In this document: positions 6,827 through 12,729 of the stretch, one piece after another
Numbering within the stretch: the stretch's first letter is position 1
Layout of the letters: every line of letters begins with the position of its first letter
NCBI RefSeq assembly: GCF_001315985.1
Contig: NZ_BBBI01000002.1
Span: 62,001-126,000 of the forward strand
Source of the DNA: Vulcanisaeta distributa JCM 11216
Lineage (GTDB): Archaea > Thermoproteota > Thermoprotei > Thermoproteales > Thermocladiaceae
Length of the DNA: 64,000 bases
Reading direction: 5' to 3'
Position numbers and translations under genes: made by a program
The notes under the pieces: model-generated
Database searches by the model: none
What the model was told of the DNA's origin: nothing
The model's input: the letters and a program-made list of their open reading frames with translations, nothing else

Positions 6827-6878
6827 GTGATGACCACCTCGACCCCCCCTGAGCAATGAGGAGTGGTATTACGACTGA
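6827..6878 (+). ncRNA. C/D box guide sRNA, one guide lengthened by a C tract
   Basis: C box GTGATGA (6827-6833), guide 6834-6848, D' box CTGA (6849-6852), spacer GCA, C' box ATGAGGA (6856-6862), 12-nt guide (6863-6874), D box CTGA (6875-6878). The D guide is complementary to TCGTAATACCAC, whose core GTAATACCA resembles the conserved 530-loop of 16S rRNA, so that loop is a possible target. The D' guide is 15 nt because it ends in a C7 run; with four C it would be the canonical 12. The TATA-like TTTTTAATA (6795-6803) lies about 27 nt upstream. The D box touches the stop codon of the convergent csl4 gene. Confidence 0.82.
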
Positions 6879-7451
6879 TCAAGCCCAGTACTCAACAAGG
6901 CTAACCTTACGCCTAACCACAGCACCACAATTAGGCACTGAAGCAACTCCCCCCCACCCTTCCACCTCAATGGATGACCACACCTAGGGCACTTGGCATA
7001 AACCACACCAAGCTGCGCATCCCTTAGGGTCAATGTATACGGTGGATCCCTCGATATAACCCTCGCCCTAATTATATCGCCAATTCCAAGAACCTCACTG
7101 GCGCTACTGGGTTTCCCGTTCAATAATTGGGATGGAGGTACTATACCCGTCACGTCATCCCTTAGCGCAACCTTACTGCCATTATTTTCAACACCAATTA
7201 TCTTCACAACGACAACCCTATCATTTGGCATTGCCACAACCTTACCATAAACAATATCGTTCATTTTCAACAACGAATTACTACTCCTTATCGGCTTAAC
7301 ACTGACCACATGCTCCCGATCATTACGTATGACTACCCCCATAACCTGAGCCCTTAATTTACCATCCGCATCAACCTCAACATTCTCCCCCCGGCAAATA
7401 CTCCTCAGCAACACCAACAACATCTCCTGGAGCAACGACCTCCTTACTCAT
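6879..7451 (-). CDS. csl4: Exosome RNA-binding subunit Csl4
   Basis: Cap subunit of the archaeal RNA exosome; it binds RNA and recruits it to the Rrp41/Rrp42 ring. The N-terminal domain (MSKEVVAPGDVVGV), the S1 barrel (MNDIVYGKVVAMPNDRVVV, IGDIIRARVIS) and the C-terminal zinc ribbon CPRC...C..C are all visible. Two breaks need repair: a C6 run at 7387-7392 where five fit PGENVEVDADG, and one base missing near 6937 that hides the second half of the ribbon (CLNCGAVVRR). A box CTTATAG (7477-7483) fits a leaderless ATG at 7451. The last codon abuts the D box of the convergent sRNA. Confidence 0.85.
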
Positions 7452-7486: not shown

Positions 7487-7690
7487 TTGACTAGTGAGCA
7501 CGAAACCCTTTATAAACCTATACCCCCAAAAGCCATTGTGGTTAAGATACTCGTAACAAACCAGCGCTATAGTTATGTGACTAAAGGCCTTAATTTAAAA
7601 ATCACCTCTTACTCCGATTCTCTCATTTTCTCAGTCCTCTTTGCATTAGTCTGTTTGGGTCTCTTTGTCTGTATTATGTCTTTGGATTAG
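7487..7690 (+). CDS. Possible small membrane-anchored protein
   Basis: Open frame of 67 codons with a polar N-terminal half and one C-terminal hydrophobic segment (LIFSVLFALVCLGLFVCI). I recognise no family. A TATA-like TTTATAAAC lies inside the frame at about 7510, which would favour a shorter product or a non-coding transcript. It precedes another hydrophobic ORF with a gap of only 8 nt. It could equally be chance coding potential. Confidence 0.3.
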   Translation: MTSEHETLYKPIPPKAIVVKILVTNQRYSYVTKGLNLKITSYSDSLIFSVLFALVCLGLFVCIMSLD

Positions 7691-7698
7691 GTGGTGAA

Positions 7699-7974
7699 TT
7701 GCGTATGGGTCTTTGGTCCTTAATACACGTACTATTAATTACAATAGTCCACGTACCATGTTTATACGTAGCGCCCTCAAAATCTCACTATCAACATAAG
7801 AGAGTTACAATGCTCTTTGACAGCCTAGGGCCTTTACGTAAATTGGCTTTTATTGTTATTTTAGGTTCGTGGGCCTTCTCCATAATTGCCCTAATTACGA
7901 ATTATATCGTGAGCTTTCTAGGTTTCTTTCTTCCTGTTAAGATCTCGATTATTGTCTTCGCGTCCACGAACTAA
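7699..7974 (+). CDS. Possible small integral membrane protein
   Basis: Open frame of 91 codons with three hydrophobic stretches: LIHVLLITIVHVPCLYV near the N-terminus, LAFIVILGSWAFSIIALI in the middle and IVSFLGFFLPVKISIIVFA at the end. No family recognised. It contains no G/C tract, unlike most genes in the window. The following 180 nt (7975-8155) are AT-rich with no gene that I can see. Confidence 0.35.
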   Translation: MRMGLWSLIHVLLITIVHVPCLYVAPSKSHYQHKRVTMLFDSLGPLRKLAFIVILGSWAFSIIALITNYIVSFLGFFLPVKISIIVFASTN

Positions 7975-8155
7975 ACAATCTCCCTACTCTTAAACTAAAG
8001 CCCTATTAAAATCTACAACATCTATACATAAACCCTCTAACAAACAAATCTAATAGATACATCAGCATAGATAAAGCATACGAGGACAGGTAAGGAGAAA
8101 GGAACAAAATAAAGACATTGCTGATTTTTATATTCAAATGCCAAAATAGTAAAAA

Positions 8156-8959
8156 CTATGTCTGGAAGTCTTGATACATGTCGCATGTGGTGTATTGGTT
8201 AAACATCTGCGTATACTGAACATTAGAATTCTCAGCAGTATTATTAGCGAGCGTACCCTGATATAGATTTACACCGGAGCAGTAATAGAACGTGCCAGAG
8301 CCACCGGAATTAAAAATTACATAAGAGACGTCAGCGCCGGCCCAAACAACATTAGATGGAAACCAATAATCCGAGTATTGAGATGGTATATTCCATACAT
8401 ATGTCCAAGGCCCATTCGTATTAGGTACTGACACCTGCTCATACACATACGAAATCATGCCATTACTATTCATACCATACAGGATATACCAAACAGCGCC
8501 AGAGACGAGAGCCCACGGTACATTTGATACCTCTCCAGGAATTTGTGGTTGCCAAATGAGGGCAGGATAAATCACACATGGGGGGGGTGGGACCCATATC
8601 TGTACAGTGAATAGTAACTCATTAGAATACGCATTGTATGCAATAATTCCCTGGACCCAGTATCCATTGCCTTGAGTACATACGAGATACTGATCTGGGT
8701 TGAACTGCAACGAAATCCAGCCATCATCATTTGGTCCGTAATACTGCACAGTCATAGTATTGACGATAACCGCGTGAACACTTACAAAGCTCGGCGTACC
8801 TGTGGTATCAACCTCATAATTACACCCACCGATAGGTTGTGAGCATGTGTTTTGCGCAACCACGCGTCCTGAGAATACCAACACTACCGTTAACATTATT
8901 AAGAGCGTTAATAAAGCAATAATTGTCACATTCAGGTTCTTCATCACCATGCTAATCAC
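8156..8959 (-). CDS. Secreted protein of unknown function
   Basis: 267 residues with a clear N-terminal signal or anchor (VTIIALLTLLIMLTVVLVF, then SGRVVAQ) and an extracellular part rich in Trp, Tyr, Asn and Gly (NDDGWISLQFNPDQYLV, GNGYWVQGIIAYN, WAGADVSYVIFNSGG). Cys residues early and late (CSQPIGGC, YYCSG, TTCD) could form disulfides. The overall look is that of a secreted beta-rich protein and is loosely reminiscent of thermopsin-like acid proteases, but no catalytic motif was identified. A run of eight G (8580-8587) encodes four prolines. Its ATG overlaps the stop of the upstream secreted-protein gene by 4 nt, so the two are co-transcribed. Confidence 0.6.
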   Translation of the reverse strand: MISMVMKNLNVTIIALLTLLIMLTVVLVFSGRVVAQNTCSQPIGGCNYEVDTTGTPSFVSVHAVIVNTMTVQYYGPNDDGWISLQFNPDQYLVCTQGNGYWVQGIIAYNAYSNELLFTVQIWVPPPPCVIYPALIWQPQIPGEVSNVPWALVSGAVWYILYGMNSNGMISYVYEQVSVPNTNGPWTYVWNIPSQYSDYWFPSNVVWAGADVSYVIFNSGGSGTFYYCSGVNLYQGTLANNTAENSNVQYTQMFNQYTTCDMYQDFQT

Positions 8960-9897
8960 CCGTTGGTGTTTATCTCATTTTTATTTGAGTAAATGACTGC
9001 GTAATTCGTAGGTAATGGGTACCAGATATACCCTATTATGTACTTTGGTGCTATGTTGCTTATCCCCCCCGGCGTTATGTCGTCCATGCTTATTGATTGC
9101 AGGTTTGTGATTGACTTTGTGATCACGTATATCGTGGGCTCCTCAATGATGTATTGGCCGTTTTCAAATAATTGCTTGGCCGTTGGTAAGGACTTACTCG
9201 TGCTTCCAAAGGTGCCGATCAAACCATACTTAACCATTAACTGGACCTCCTCGGCCTCGCTCGTGATGTTGCAGACCGGTAGTGCGTAGGGGACTGCGGA
9301 GTATAGGATCACCACTATGGTGTCACCTGGAGTGACGTTGATTGCGGGGAACCCAACGCCTATTCCCGTGTGTACCACGTACCAATTCTCCGTATTAGCG
9401 ATTTGCCAGAAGTTCATGGTTTTATTACCGTAAACGTATGGATGATTGACCGTTATGGCCAATGCCTGCAGTGGCTGTGATTGATTATTTGAGGCTATTA
9501 ACCTGCCGTTCAGGTATATGCCAAGCCACATGGCATTGCCTGAATATGACATGCTGGCCCATGATGACAGCGTCTCATTTATTATGGCGGTTGGGAAGTC
9601 AATGTATAATTCATAACCATTAATCTTCATATCCCCATGAACATGGTATACAAGGGCTATTGCCGAGCCACCGGGCATGATGAGGTCATAAGAAGAATTA
9701 CACCAGATAGCACCGTATTGGATTATGATTGGCATTATGGTTGGCGGATGCTCAATTGATTGACCCACGTGAGAGGGACTCACGGAGCCGGAACCACCGA
9801 TATGCCAAGTACTACGCACGACAAGCAAGGATACAACCACAGCCACCATAACCAACACAGCCACTAACCACCCCACCCTCAAACCCATAATAATCAA
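8956..9897 (-). CDS. Secreted or membrane-anchored protein, operon partner of the 8156 gene
   Basis: About 310 residues. The N-terminus LVAVLVMVAVVVSLLVV is a signal-anchor; the rest is extracellular, with several NxS/T sites and aromatic-rich beta segments (GAIWCNSSYDLIMPGGSAIALVYH, here shortened: GNAMWLGIYLNGRLIAS; NFWQIANTENWYVVH). No family recognised. C7 at 9064-9070 adds a glycine. The ATG at about 9888 (MGLRVGW) is the likeliest start. It is followed with a 4-nt overlap by the second secreted-protein gene, so the two products may act together at the cell surface. Confidence 0.58.
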   Translation of the reverse strand: MIIMGLRVGWLVAVLVMVAVVVSLLVVRSTWHIGGSGSVSPSHVGQSIEHPPTIMPIIIQYGAIWCNSSYDLIMPGGSAIALVYHVHGDMKINGYELYIDFPTAIINETLSSWASMSYSGNAMWLGIYLNGRLIASNNQSQPLQALAITVNHPYVYGNKTMNFWQIANTENWYVVHTGIGVGFPAINVTPGDTIVVILYSAVPYALPVCNITSEAEEVQLMVKYGLIGTFGSTSKSLPTAKQLFENGQYIIEEPTIYVITKSITNLQSISMDDITPGGISNIAPKYIIGYIWYPLPTNYAVIYSNKNEINTNG

Positions 9898-10243
9898 TTC
9901 TTCTCATTTTATGGGACTTTTTTTTTACTTCGGGTGTTCAGAGAAAGTGAGTCGAGTGGGTTTAGATGGGCTTTATGGTTGAGGGTTTCTGCTTGAACGT
10001 TGTTTTTGGCTGAGTTAGTACCTATGGGTTAGACTGAGCATTTGGCAATGATTAATGGACGAAACTAATCATTAATCGGCATGGACGTGCATTGCCAATC
10101 AATTATTCTTAATTCAGAATTGCGTTTATTCACCTACCAGCCTTACCAAACAACTTTCCTCAATCATTCGACTATTAATTAAAGATTGCCCAAGACTACC
10201 CTTAAATACTCAGCAGTTAAAATAATTAGTTAGTTAGAAGGTG
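9898..10243. other. Intergenic region with a small promoter
   Basis: About 350 nt without a gene. It holds the nested inverted repeat at 10042-10098 (listed separately) and, at its right end, CTTAAATA (10201-10208), a TATA-like box about 26 nt before roughly 10230 that could drive the small ORF at 10244. Nothing else was recognised. Confidence 0.5.
10042..10098. repeat. Nested inverted repeats
   Basis: TTGGCAATG (10042-10050) pairs with CATTGCCAA (10090-10098). Immediately inside, ATTAATG (10051-10057) pairs with CATTAAT (10070-10076). The two stems leave a short unpaired 13-nt segment on the right, so the element can form a branched hairpin. It lies at the left edge of the accessory island and could be an operator, a terminator or a relic of a small mobile element. 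Confidence 0.45.
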
Positions 10244-10447
10244 ATGAGCCCCCCCTGAGCAAACCACCCGGTGTAGCCGGGGGGGCGGATGCTCGGTGGG
10301 TGATCCAACCTGCCCGGCCCCCCCGTGGGTAGTGCCTAGGCGAGAGTATTGACTTTGTAAAATGCGTATGCGGTAATTACCTAAAGGGTGATGGCAATAA
10401 TAGCGGTAGCACCGGCACTGGTGCTAATGGAAGCAATAACAATTAAA
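10244..10447 (+). pseudogene. Small gene interrupted by an in-frame TAG and a C tract
   Basis: From the ATG at 10244 (preceded by AGAAGGTG), if the C7 run at 10249-10255 is read as five C, one frame gives MSPLSKPPGVAGADARWVIQ and RPRG, then TAG, then CLGESIDFVKCVCGNYLKGD and a Gly/Asn/Ser tail to TAA at 10447. The tail composition and the CVCG pair suggest a real small protein. The TAG at about 10328-10330 lies outside any homopolymer and has no downstream-shift rescue that I found. The same DNA can form paired G7/C7 stems (10279-10285 with 10318-10324), so an RNA role is the alternative. Confidence 0.35.
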
Positions 10448-10480
10448 TAACTTAGCCAATCAATCGCCTAAACGCTCACC

Positions 10481-10733
10481 GCCCTCCCTGCCTCTCTTCA
10501 TCCTCCTCCTCCCCCCCCTCTCCTTTGTGAGCAAGGAGCCGTGGGCCCTCCTCGTGAGGGGGGCTCCCGGCTCATGAGGGGGTGCTGTGGGGGGCTTGGG
10601 ATCCACGAGCACCGGGATTCCGATGGTGTCGGGGGGGGTGTCGTTCCTCGGCTGGTGATGGGGGGGCTTGGGATCCAAAGAACCAACCGAGGAAACGACG
10701 GGAGGGCAGGTGAAGAGGGGGGGTAGGGAGGGC
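10481..10733 (+). ncRNA. Candidate large structured RNA with two matching loops
   Basis: The ends pair: GCCCTCCCT (10481-10489) with AGGGAGGGC (10725-10733), extended by CTCTTC (10494-10499) with GAAGAG (10712-10717). Inside are a GAGCCG/CGGCTC hairpin (about 10536-10572), a hairpin GTGCTGTGG/CCACGAGCAC (10582-10590 with 10603-10612) and a long stem TCGTTCCTCGGCTGGT with its near complement (10641-10656 with 10682-10698). The last two each present GGGGCTTGGGATCC in the loop region. A TATA-like AATTAAATA (10441-10449) lies about 26 nt before a start near 10473. No SRP, RNase P, C/D or rRNA signature was found, so function is unknown. Minus-strand proline-rich frames here look like by-products of G runs. 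Confidence 0.5.
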
Positions 10734-10988
10734 ATTGCCCGAGCAACAAAAACAATAAGCTAGCAAGACATCCAGCAGTCCCTAGGCAAAAACAACCAAA
10801 ATCCTATGAATCACGGGAAAATAAAGAATGTTGTTCAAGCAATTGCTGAAACAAGCGATCAATGGGAAAAATGAGGAACGTAGGAAATTAGTGAGCAGAC
10901 TCTAGGGCTTTGTTGGGTAGGTTTTGCCTAGCCCATGGGGTGGGTCTTCCGTGGGGGGGCGCCAACCATTACCGGGAGGGTGGTACGG
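10734..10988. other. Intergenic, no gene recognised
   Basis: About 250 nt between the candidate RNA and the GC hairpin. It contains A-rich sequence (10742-10880) and then G-rich sequence from 10935 that is open in one frame into the next gene but resembles nothing I know. I see no promoter of good quality and no RNA signature. Confidence 0.4.
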
Positions 10989-11019
10989 CCCCCACGGGGG
11001 GGACCCGCCCCCGTGGGGG
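10989..11019. repeat. Perfect 12-bp GC hairpin upstream of the PaREP2-like gene
   Basis: CCCCCACGGGGG (10989-11000) and CCCCCGTGGGGG (11008-11019) are exact reverse complements separated by 7 nt. The hairpin lies 25 nt before the ATG at 11044 and is flanked by further G7 runs (10953-10959, 11028-11034). It could be a transcription terminator for the island to the left, a translational block, or a recognition structure for element mobility. Confidence 0.6.
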
Positions 11020-11043
11020 GGTTAAGTGGGGGGGTGAATCAAA

Positions 11044-12729
11044 ATGACGAGGAAAGACAAGCCAAAAAAGACCCTGCCCAGGGAGGGCAGGGATCAAAAA
11101 CAAAAAGAGGCAGGGAGGGCTGTGGGTGAGGAGGTAAGGGTGCCGGAGGCGATGGATATTTGCAGTGGTGTTAGGAGGGGGGGTAGGCGCCTGGTGTGTG
11201 GAGGGCCTGTCACGGATCCGGTGGTGAGGGCTGAGGTAATTGACTTACTAAACGAGGCCATGAAACGACTAATCAGGTGGAGAGTTTGGGATGCGCAATG
11301 GATAGATGAAATGCATGTGAAGAATATGGAGAGGGCCAAGGAAGCACTAAGGCAGTTAGAGGGCAAGTACCCAAGGGAAGTAATTGAGGTCATCGAGGGA
11401 ATAATCGACGCATTACTAAACCACGTGAAAAACAGACTAAAGAAGTACTGGATAAACAACGTTAGCGAGGATGTCAAGAGGCTGATCAGGAAAATAACGA
11501 ACGGAGGTGCTAAAGTCATAATAAACAAGACCGATAAGTCGTTGACTGTGCATGTATACGGGAATCATGTTGAGCTAAATGTTAATAGTATTTTTAGGAG
11601 CAATAGCGTGATTGTTCAATTAATACTTAGAGACTTAGGTGGTTTTCACATTAACGTACCTGATGTGCTTAATGACTTAATGAGTAATGAGGAGTACGTG
11701 AAGTTGATTGAGAATGTTGTTAAATCAATGAGGGGGGGGTGGGTTTGCTGTTACAGATGAGGGTAGGGATAGGCATGGCAATAGACCGGTGATGAGTACC
11801 ACGCAGCTATGGCAAGTGATTTTATGGTTGTTATTATATCCAGCGAGTCTCATGCCTATATTAATGCCGTTAACGTAAATAAGAGCGATGTCGCGATTAA
11901 GTGGAAATTAAGGGCTAGGTGCTGTTATTCAATAAAGCGGTGTGCGTTAAGTGACGCGTTAAAATATGATGATGGAGCATTCCTAACCTTTATTTTAGCT
12001 ATTATACTAGGTGATGGCGATGTCACGCTTTCATGGCGTAGCAATTCCGTTGAACCTATAGTTAAATTTACAATAAATGCCGAGGAGTTTGAAAAGAGTG
12101 AGGAATGGAAACAAATCCTTAATAGGCTTGAGCTACTTGGCATTATGTGGAGTAAGGATGATACTAGACGGGATAGGGTCGTCATTGTAATAAGAAGTAG
12201 TTATGCCATTAATTTAGTTAGGAAAATAATTGAAGCTTTGCCACCTGTGATTAATGCTTTATTTGACGTTTTAGAAGCTTTAGGTTTCGAGAAGTGGAGT
12301 AAGATTAAGGAGGTTGCTAATACGGAGCTGCGCTTTAAAACCGGTGTTTGGCAGGTCGAAATAGGTGGTGTGAAGTTTAGCATAAGTATCCCACATTCTT
12401 ATGCCCTTGTATTAAGGGTTAAGAGGTGTGATCCTATTGAGGCTCAAAGGATCATAGACCGTATAAGGATGATTTACGGTGAAGACTTCGAAATCAAGAC
12501 TAGAAGGAACAATAAAGGATGCATAGAAATTAAAATACCCTGGAACGAAATTAAGAGGCGCGATGATATTAAGAAAGTAATAAAGATGAAGCTTTGTGAG
12601 GTACTAGCACTAGGTGAGGTAAAGAACGAAGATATGCGTGTAAAAATGACAAACCTCCTTCAAAAACTCGCCCAGACACCCACAGAGGGGGGTCGGGCAG
12701 GTAAATCCAGTTACGCCTTACCTTGCTGA
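11044..12729 (+). CDS. PaREP2b-like repeat-family protein, frame-broken
   Basis: One reading frame reconstructed from two parts (about 560 codons). The charged N-terminus (DKPKKTLPREGRDQKQKE) leads into helices (EVIDLLNEAMKRLIRW, KEALRQLEGKYPREVIEVI) and then an alpha/beta region. The central junction, broken at G8 11732-11739 and near 11845, reads GFAVTDEGRDRHGN, STTQLWQVILW, SESHAYINAVNVNKSD. The segment FLTFILAIILGDGDVTL resembles a LAGLIDADG-type helix of homing-endonuclease-like folds. Multi-copy, frequently degraded PaREP2b proteins are known in Pyrobaculum; assignment here is by overall resemblance and is moderate. The reading frame ends exactly where SurE homology begins. Confidence 0.5.

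What the first reader, a model, noticed from the sequence alone, without database searches (positions are those of the whole stretch)
6834..6848. sRNA guide of 15 nt that would be 12 nt without three C
The C-to-D' spacing of the plus-strand sRNA is 15 nt and ends in C7; with C4 it is the standard 12. This shows the plus-three effect in a non-coding gene, where reading-frame selection cannot explain multiples of three.
Basis: partly seen in the sequence, partly recalled or inferred. Interest (0 to 1): 0.7.

Follow-up and report, generated by a model that had tools for sequence, protein, structure and literature searches.

The report
Ordinary guide RNA with miscounted C-run
A normal archaeal RNA-methylation guide RNA appears three letters too long because this assembly miscounts runs of C and G throughout the genome, even inside ribosomal RNA, so it is almost certainly a sequencing or assembly error and not biology.

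Summary
A box C/D sRNA lies at 6827-6878 (+), and its C-to-D' guide is 15 nt, running into C7. Nine same-genus orthologues have guides of 12 nt (7 of 9), 11 nt (1) and 13 nt (1); none has 15.

The extra three C are almost certainly not in the organism. Lengths shift mainly at G/C runs of 4 or more: against the nearest relative 58 of 105 four-base runs read 7, while A/T runs and shorter runs are nearly unchanged. The same expansion sits inside the assembly's own 16S gene: over 1068 aligned positions, 2 substitutions but 58 inserted G/C, with 12 of 23 four-base runs reading 7. Coding and non-coding runs are hit alike. Longer runs do not follow +3 strictly. No run of 9 or more exists in the 2.4-Mb assembly, despite 4803 isolated runs of 7. 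A second affected species is hit at independent sites.

With 12 nt, the two guides match 16S rRNA 21 nt apart. The tool or chemistry behind the error is unidentified.

The parts
6827..6833 (+). C box GTGATGA of a box C/D sRNA
   Evidence: identical in 8 of 9 orthologues (ATGATGA in G003)
6834..6848 (+). D' guide, 15 nt as assembled, 12 nt in 7 of 9 orthologues
6843..6849 (+). C7 run; orthologues C4 in 7 of 9, C3 in G008, C5 in G002; the expanded run
   Evidence: guide end plus first base of D'
6849..6852 (+). D' box CTGA
6856..6862 (+). C' box ATGAGGA
6863..6874 (+). D guide, 12 nt in all ten sequences; 9-bp match to 16S CGGTAATACCAG
6875..6878 (+). D box CTGA
6879..7451 (-). exosome Csl4-like gene (limits by comparison with G001) directly beyond the D box on the other strand; frame broken in this assembly by one extra C at 7387-7392 (C6) and one missing base at 6934-6935, besides a C4-to-C7 change at 6949-6955
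   Evidence: G001 orthologue hits PF14382; the name Csl4 is recalled

Best explanation
This is an ordinary archaeal box C/D 2'-O-methylation guide sRNA whose two guides are predicted to pair with neighbouring sites of 16S rRNA. Its true D' guide is most likely 12 nt (C4). The assembled C7 is a consensus-sequence error: where the DNA has a G/C run of four, this assembly writes 7 in about 55-60% of cases, with no clear dependence on context; longer runs drift up to at most 8. Shown: the systematic length change, its lack of dependence on coding status and flanking base, its presence inside rRNA genes, its absence in a relative 95% identical over the sRNA region, and the orthologous 11-13-nt guides. 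Inferred: that it arose in basecalling, run-length calling or polishing of (probably long) reads. The exact tool was not identified.
For: Run-length spectrum: C4 32 and C7 51, G4 36 and G7 68, against geometric expectations of 163/3.6 and 192/5.1; A and T show no excess at 7. Against G006, four-base G/C runs read 3:2, 4:36, 5:7, 6:2, 7:58 (n=105); three-base G/C runs unchanged in 631 of 638; A/T four-base runs unchanged in 78 of 80; against G001 33 of 55 and against G004 20 of 37 four-base runs read 7. G006 against G001 shows no such shift (51 of 52 four-base runs unchanged). The 16S gene of the same assembly (1068 of 1510 positions present): 2 mismatches to G006 but 58 inserted bases, all G or C, four-base runs 4:8, 5:3, 7:12 (n=23); G002 23S (2047 of 3061 positions): 12 mismatches, 135 inserted bases, all G or C, 24 of 44 four-base runs at 7 (alignments). 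Coding 48 of 93 and non-coding 12 of 18 four-base runs at 7 (Fisher P 0.31). No significant effect of a flanking T (P 0.19 and 0.81). G000 and G002 independent at shared sites (G002 at 7-8 in 13 of 29 where G000 is 7, at 7 in 9 of 22 where G000 is 4; 54 sites in all). No run of 9 or more in G000 or G002, against 4803 and 3857 isolated runs of 7. None of 9 orthologues has a 15-nt guide. The 12-nt D' guide has 10 consecutive pairs with 16S, and the D guide target is 21 nt away.
Against: No reads or sequencing metadata were available, so the error was inferred, not seen in raw data. The three affected assemblies found all belong to one family, and none turned up among 229 genomes of another class, which a purely technical cause does not predict unless they share a project. 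A mode at +3 for four-base runs is not an error profile I met: the passages of PMC9262707 that I read describe homopolymer indels in nanopore consensus but no such mode. G326, unlike G000 and G002, does have some runs of 9 or more. A few three-base runs also read 7 (2 against G005, 1 against G002; 1 each against G006 and G001).
Confidence: 0.95

Rival explanations
1. A DNA modification or structure of C/G runs in this archaeal family distorts the sequencing signal, so the wrong lengths are technical but have a biological trigger. (This overlaps the best explanation: it concerns the cause of the same error.)
For: All three affected assemblies found lie in one family (G000 and G002 in one genus, G326 in another); none of 229 genomes of another class is affected. 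G/C runs are hit, A/T runs are not.
Against: Same-genus G006 (95% identical over the sRNA region) and G143 (same genus as G326) are not affected, though they may have been sequenced differently. No significant flanking-base dependence, and the same site can read 4 in one species and 7 in the other.
Confidence: 0.15
2. The genomic DNA really carries C7/G7: a mutational process adds three bases to G/C runs of four or more, and cells tolerate it or correct it in RNA (the biological 'plus-three effect').
For: The assembled letters; the effect spans coding, intergenic, sRNA and rRNA sequence, and runs of 7 are in excess in three species.
Against: 58 inserted bases in a 16S gene with only 2 substitutions; a ceiling at 8 bases in G000 and G002, unlike slippage; five- and six-base runs not strictly +3; the longer D' guide moves the 10-pair block three bases away from D' and so shifts the N+5 position; the neighbouring Csl4-like gene is frame-broken by a +1 change in a C run.
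Confidence: 0.02
3. Reading-frame selection on ordinary run slippage leaves multiples of three.
For: +3 dominates in coding runs (48 of the 56 altered four-base runs).
Against: The same dominance in non-coding runs (12 of 15 altered four-base runs; Fisher P 0.69) and in rRNA genes (12 of 15 in 16S and 24 of 33 in 23S).
Confidence: 0.01

Closest known systems
Archaeal box C/D sRNAs (2'-O-methylation guides, L7Ae/Nop5/fibrillarin)
   Same: C, D', C' and D boxes in order, 12-nt D guide, two guides with matches to neighbouring 16S sites, conserved in the genus
   Different: D' guide 15 nt as assembled; passages of PMC4644070 give guides as typically 10 to 12 nt
Homopolymer-length errors in long-read consensus assemblies
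   Same: Length changes concentrated in homopolymers, frames broken, low completeness score (67.75)
   Different: G/C runs of 4 or more, mode at 7, ceiling at 8; no such profile in the passages read of PMC9262707

Membership tests
Archaeal box C/D sRNA | C (RTGATGA), D' (CTGA), C' and D (CTGA) boxes in order within about 50-60 nt | tested here: met
   all ten sequences
Archaeal box C/D sRNA | guides of about 10-12 nt | tested here: inconclusive
   D guide 12 nt in all ten; D' guide 11-12 nt in 8 of 9 orthologues and 13 in G002 (also an affected assembly); the window's own D' guide reads 15, attributed to the run-length error
Archaeal box C/D sRNA | guide complementarity to rRNA around the N+5 position | tested here: met
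   D' guide (12 nt) 10 pairs and D guide 9 pairs to 16S, 21 nt apart; 8 of 3000 shuffled guide pairs did as well. The D' hit alone is weak: 1671 of 3000 shuffled D' guides hit rRNA somewhere (372 of 3000 for D)
Archaeal box C/D sRNA | expressed and bound by L7Ae/Nop5/fibrillarin | not testable with these tools
   no RNA data held
Archaeal box C/D sRNA | Rfam family match (not a strict requirement) | tested here: not met
   no family reached its gathering score anywhere in the window
Consensus homopolymer error | length change concentrated in homopolymers, independent of gene function | tested here: met
Consensus homopolymer error | absent from raw or short reads of the same DNA | not testable with these tools
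   no reads held

The most novel reading that the evidence does not exclude
DNA of some members of this archaeal family carries a modification or structure at C/G runs of four or more that makes a sequencing platform report about seven bases. The error pattern would then be an indirect read-out of an unrecognised DNA feature.
Probability: 0.12. Interest if true: 0.4.

Novelty: not a real feature. Interest (0 to 1): 0.12.

Why it matters
It removes a spurious biological 'plus-three' rule. It also warns that at least three archaeal assemblies, each the held genome of its species (G000, G002, G326), carry thousands of probably wrong G/C run lengths, which corrupt rRNA genes, guide RNAs and reading frames, and may be what depresses their completeness scores. 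The isolated C7/G7 count per genome is a simple screen for the problem.

Tried and rejected
Frame selection was rejected by the non-coding and rRNA counts. Context dependence of expansion: no significant effect of a flanking T on either side; longer motifs were not tested. A motif behind the single-base deletions: listed, none evident by eye. Within-assembly duplicate copies to compare run lengths: none over 150 bp and 85% identity in the eight G000 sequences given; two TnpB-type matches per genome were found for G000 and G002 and not pursued. A 23S pattern with C7 in genome contigs found two records, Cohnella sp. CFH 77786 and a soil Deltaproteobacteria MAG. The Cohnella stretch has no excess of 7-base runs (1 in 8000 bases); the soil MAG stretch is GC-rich with 4 runs of 7 and 3 of 8 in 7217 bases but no depletion of 4-base runs; neither was pursued. 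tRNA genes as a further test: none in the window or in the 12 relatives' stretches given, 4 each of G001, G002 and G006. Paper searches for the error type or a source study (others returned no paper) gave no description of it in the listings that I saw; only passages of PMC9262707 and PMC4644070 were read, other papers only as search listings.

Full report
OBSERVATION. The window carries a box C/D sRNA on the + strand: C box 6827-6833, D' guide 6834-6848, D' box 6849-6852, C' box 6856-6862, D guide 6863-6874, D box 6875-6878. Nine orthologues were found among the 12 genus genomes searched, which include G000 itself; G007 and G011 gave no match. Their D' guides are 12 nt in 7 of 9, 11 nt in G008 and 13 nt in G002; the D guide is 12 nt in all ten sequences. 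Passages of PMC4644070 give archaeal guides as typically 10 to 12 nt and state the N-plus-five rule.

TARGETS. On G006 rRNA, the 12-nt D' guide pairs with 16S TGGTCGGGGTGC (10 consecutive pairs, one of them G-U) and the D guide with CGGTAATACCAG (9 pairs), 21 nt apart. Both guides hit within 40 nt of each other in 8 of 3000 shuffled guide pairs; singly, 1671 of 3000 shuffled D' guides and 372 of 3000 shuffled D guides hit rRNA somewhere, so it is the pairing of the two sites that carries weight. The D' guide also hits 16S position 30 and one 23S site, so this target is a prediction. The 15-nt guide keeps the same 10-pair block, but three bases further from D'; two of the three added bases can pair, not contiguously, and the N+5 position moves. 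The sites lie around the 530 loop by my own counting, not by a tool.

GENOME-WIDE EFFECT. In the window C and G runs of 4 are depleted and runs of 7 enriched, while A and T runs show no excess at 7. Aligned to G006, four-base G/C runs read 3 (2), 4 (36), 5 (7), 6 (2) and 7 (58) of 105; three-base G/C runs are unchanged in 631 of 638 and four-base A/T runs in 78 of 80. G006 against G001 shows no shift (51 of 52 unchanged). Isolated C7/G7 runs number 4803 in G000 against at most 340 in the other 299 phylum genomes sampled, which are mostly of high completeness. In the class (81 genomes) only G000, G002 (3857) and G326 (7958) stand out, the next being 310. In another class (229 genomes) the highest is 333. 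Five 20-kb stretches of G326 show the same excess at 7, while four of G143, of the same genus, do not.

WHY IT IS AN ERROR. First, the assembly's own 16S gene (cut by the contig end; 1068 of 1510 positions) has 2 mismatches to G006 but 58 inserted bases, all G or C; four-base runs read 4 (8), 5 (3) and 7 (12) of 23. Some lie in or beside highly conserved stretches, such as the run before ATTAGATACC (the conservation is recalled). G002's 23S (2047 of 3061 positions) shows the same: 12 mismatches, 135 inserted G or C, 24 of 44 four-base runs at 7. Counted with flanking sequence the figures are 13 of 27 and 26 of 46. Ribosomes built from such genes would not be expected to work (inference). Second, the change is not a clean +3: five-base runs in the two rRNA genes become 7 (11) or 8 (10) of 26, with 2 at 6 and 3 unchanged, and six-base runs become 8 in 4 of 6; in the window five-base runs against G006 read 5 (4), 6 (5), 7 (4) and 8 (1) of 14. 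Third, there is a ceiling: no C/G run of 9 or more exists in G000 or G002; G326 does have some. Fourth, the altered sites look random: no significant effect of a flanking T, and G000 and G002 do not agree beyond chance (Fisher P 1.0 on 51 of 54 shared sites, those where G000 reads 4 or 7). Fifth, coding (48 of 93) and non-coding (12 of 18) four-base runs both go to 7 without significant difference; the coding map is of ORFs of 80 aa or more in G006. Sixth, the neighbouring Csl4-like exosome gene, open in G001, is frame-broken here by one extra C in a C run (7387-7392) and one missing base (6934-6935, also missing in G006 but present in the 8 other orthologues), besides a C4-to-C7.

LIMITS. No reads or metadata were available, so the step that made the error (basecalling, run-length calling or polishing) is inferred. 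The restriction of affected assemblies to one family is unexplained: it may reflect one sequencing project, or a DNA feature that distorts the signal. G006 is itself a low-completeness assembly (63) with single-base deletions against G001, so it is not a perfect yardstick, but G001 and G004 (99% complete) give the same picture for four-base runs (33 of 55 and 20 of 37 read 7). G002's 13-nt guide comes from an assembly with the same problem, so its true length is open.

VERDICT. The sRNA is a new member of a known kind; the 15-nt guide is not a real feature. The host looks like a Vulcanisaeta relative; that name is recalled and comes from no call.

Noticed in passing
window 7558-12729: A stretch of about 5.2 kb absent from G001, G004 and G006 interrupts a surE gene shortly after its start (G001 orthologue hits PF01975); it replaces roughly 90 bases and carries two predicted proteins without Pfam matches and an unscanned 306-aa ORF at 11809-12729.
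   Followed up: partly
window 6934-6935: One base missing in the Csl4-like gene (TTAGG-CA), shared by G000 and G006 but by none of the 8 other orthologues; a real change or a shared systematic deletion error.
   Followed up: partly
G326 (loci L061-L065): A member of another genus of the same family, 47% complete, has 7958 isolated C7/G7 runs, the highest count of any genome searched with that pattern.
   Followed up: partly
L059:6502-6520 and L060:463-481: C7 in a normally C4 stretch of 23S (recalled) in Cohnella sp. CFH 77786 and in soil MAG CTSoil_087, without the depletion of 4-base runs seen here.
   Followed up: no
G000:C19 end and G002:C10 start: Contigs end inside the 16S gene (G000) and begin inside the 23S gene (G002), where expanded G/C runs are dense.
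   Followed up: no
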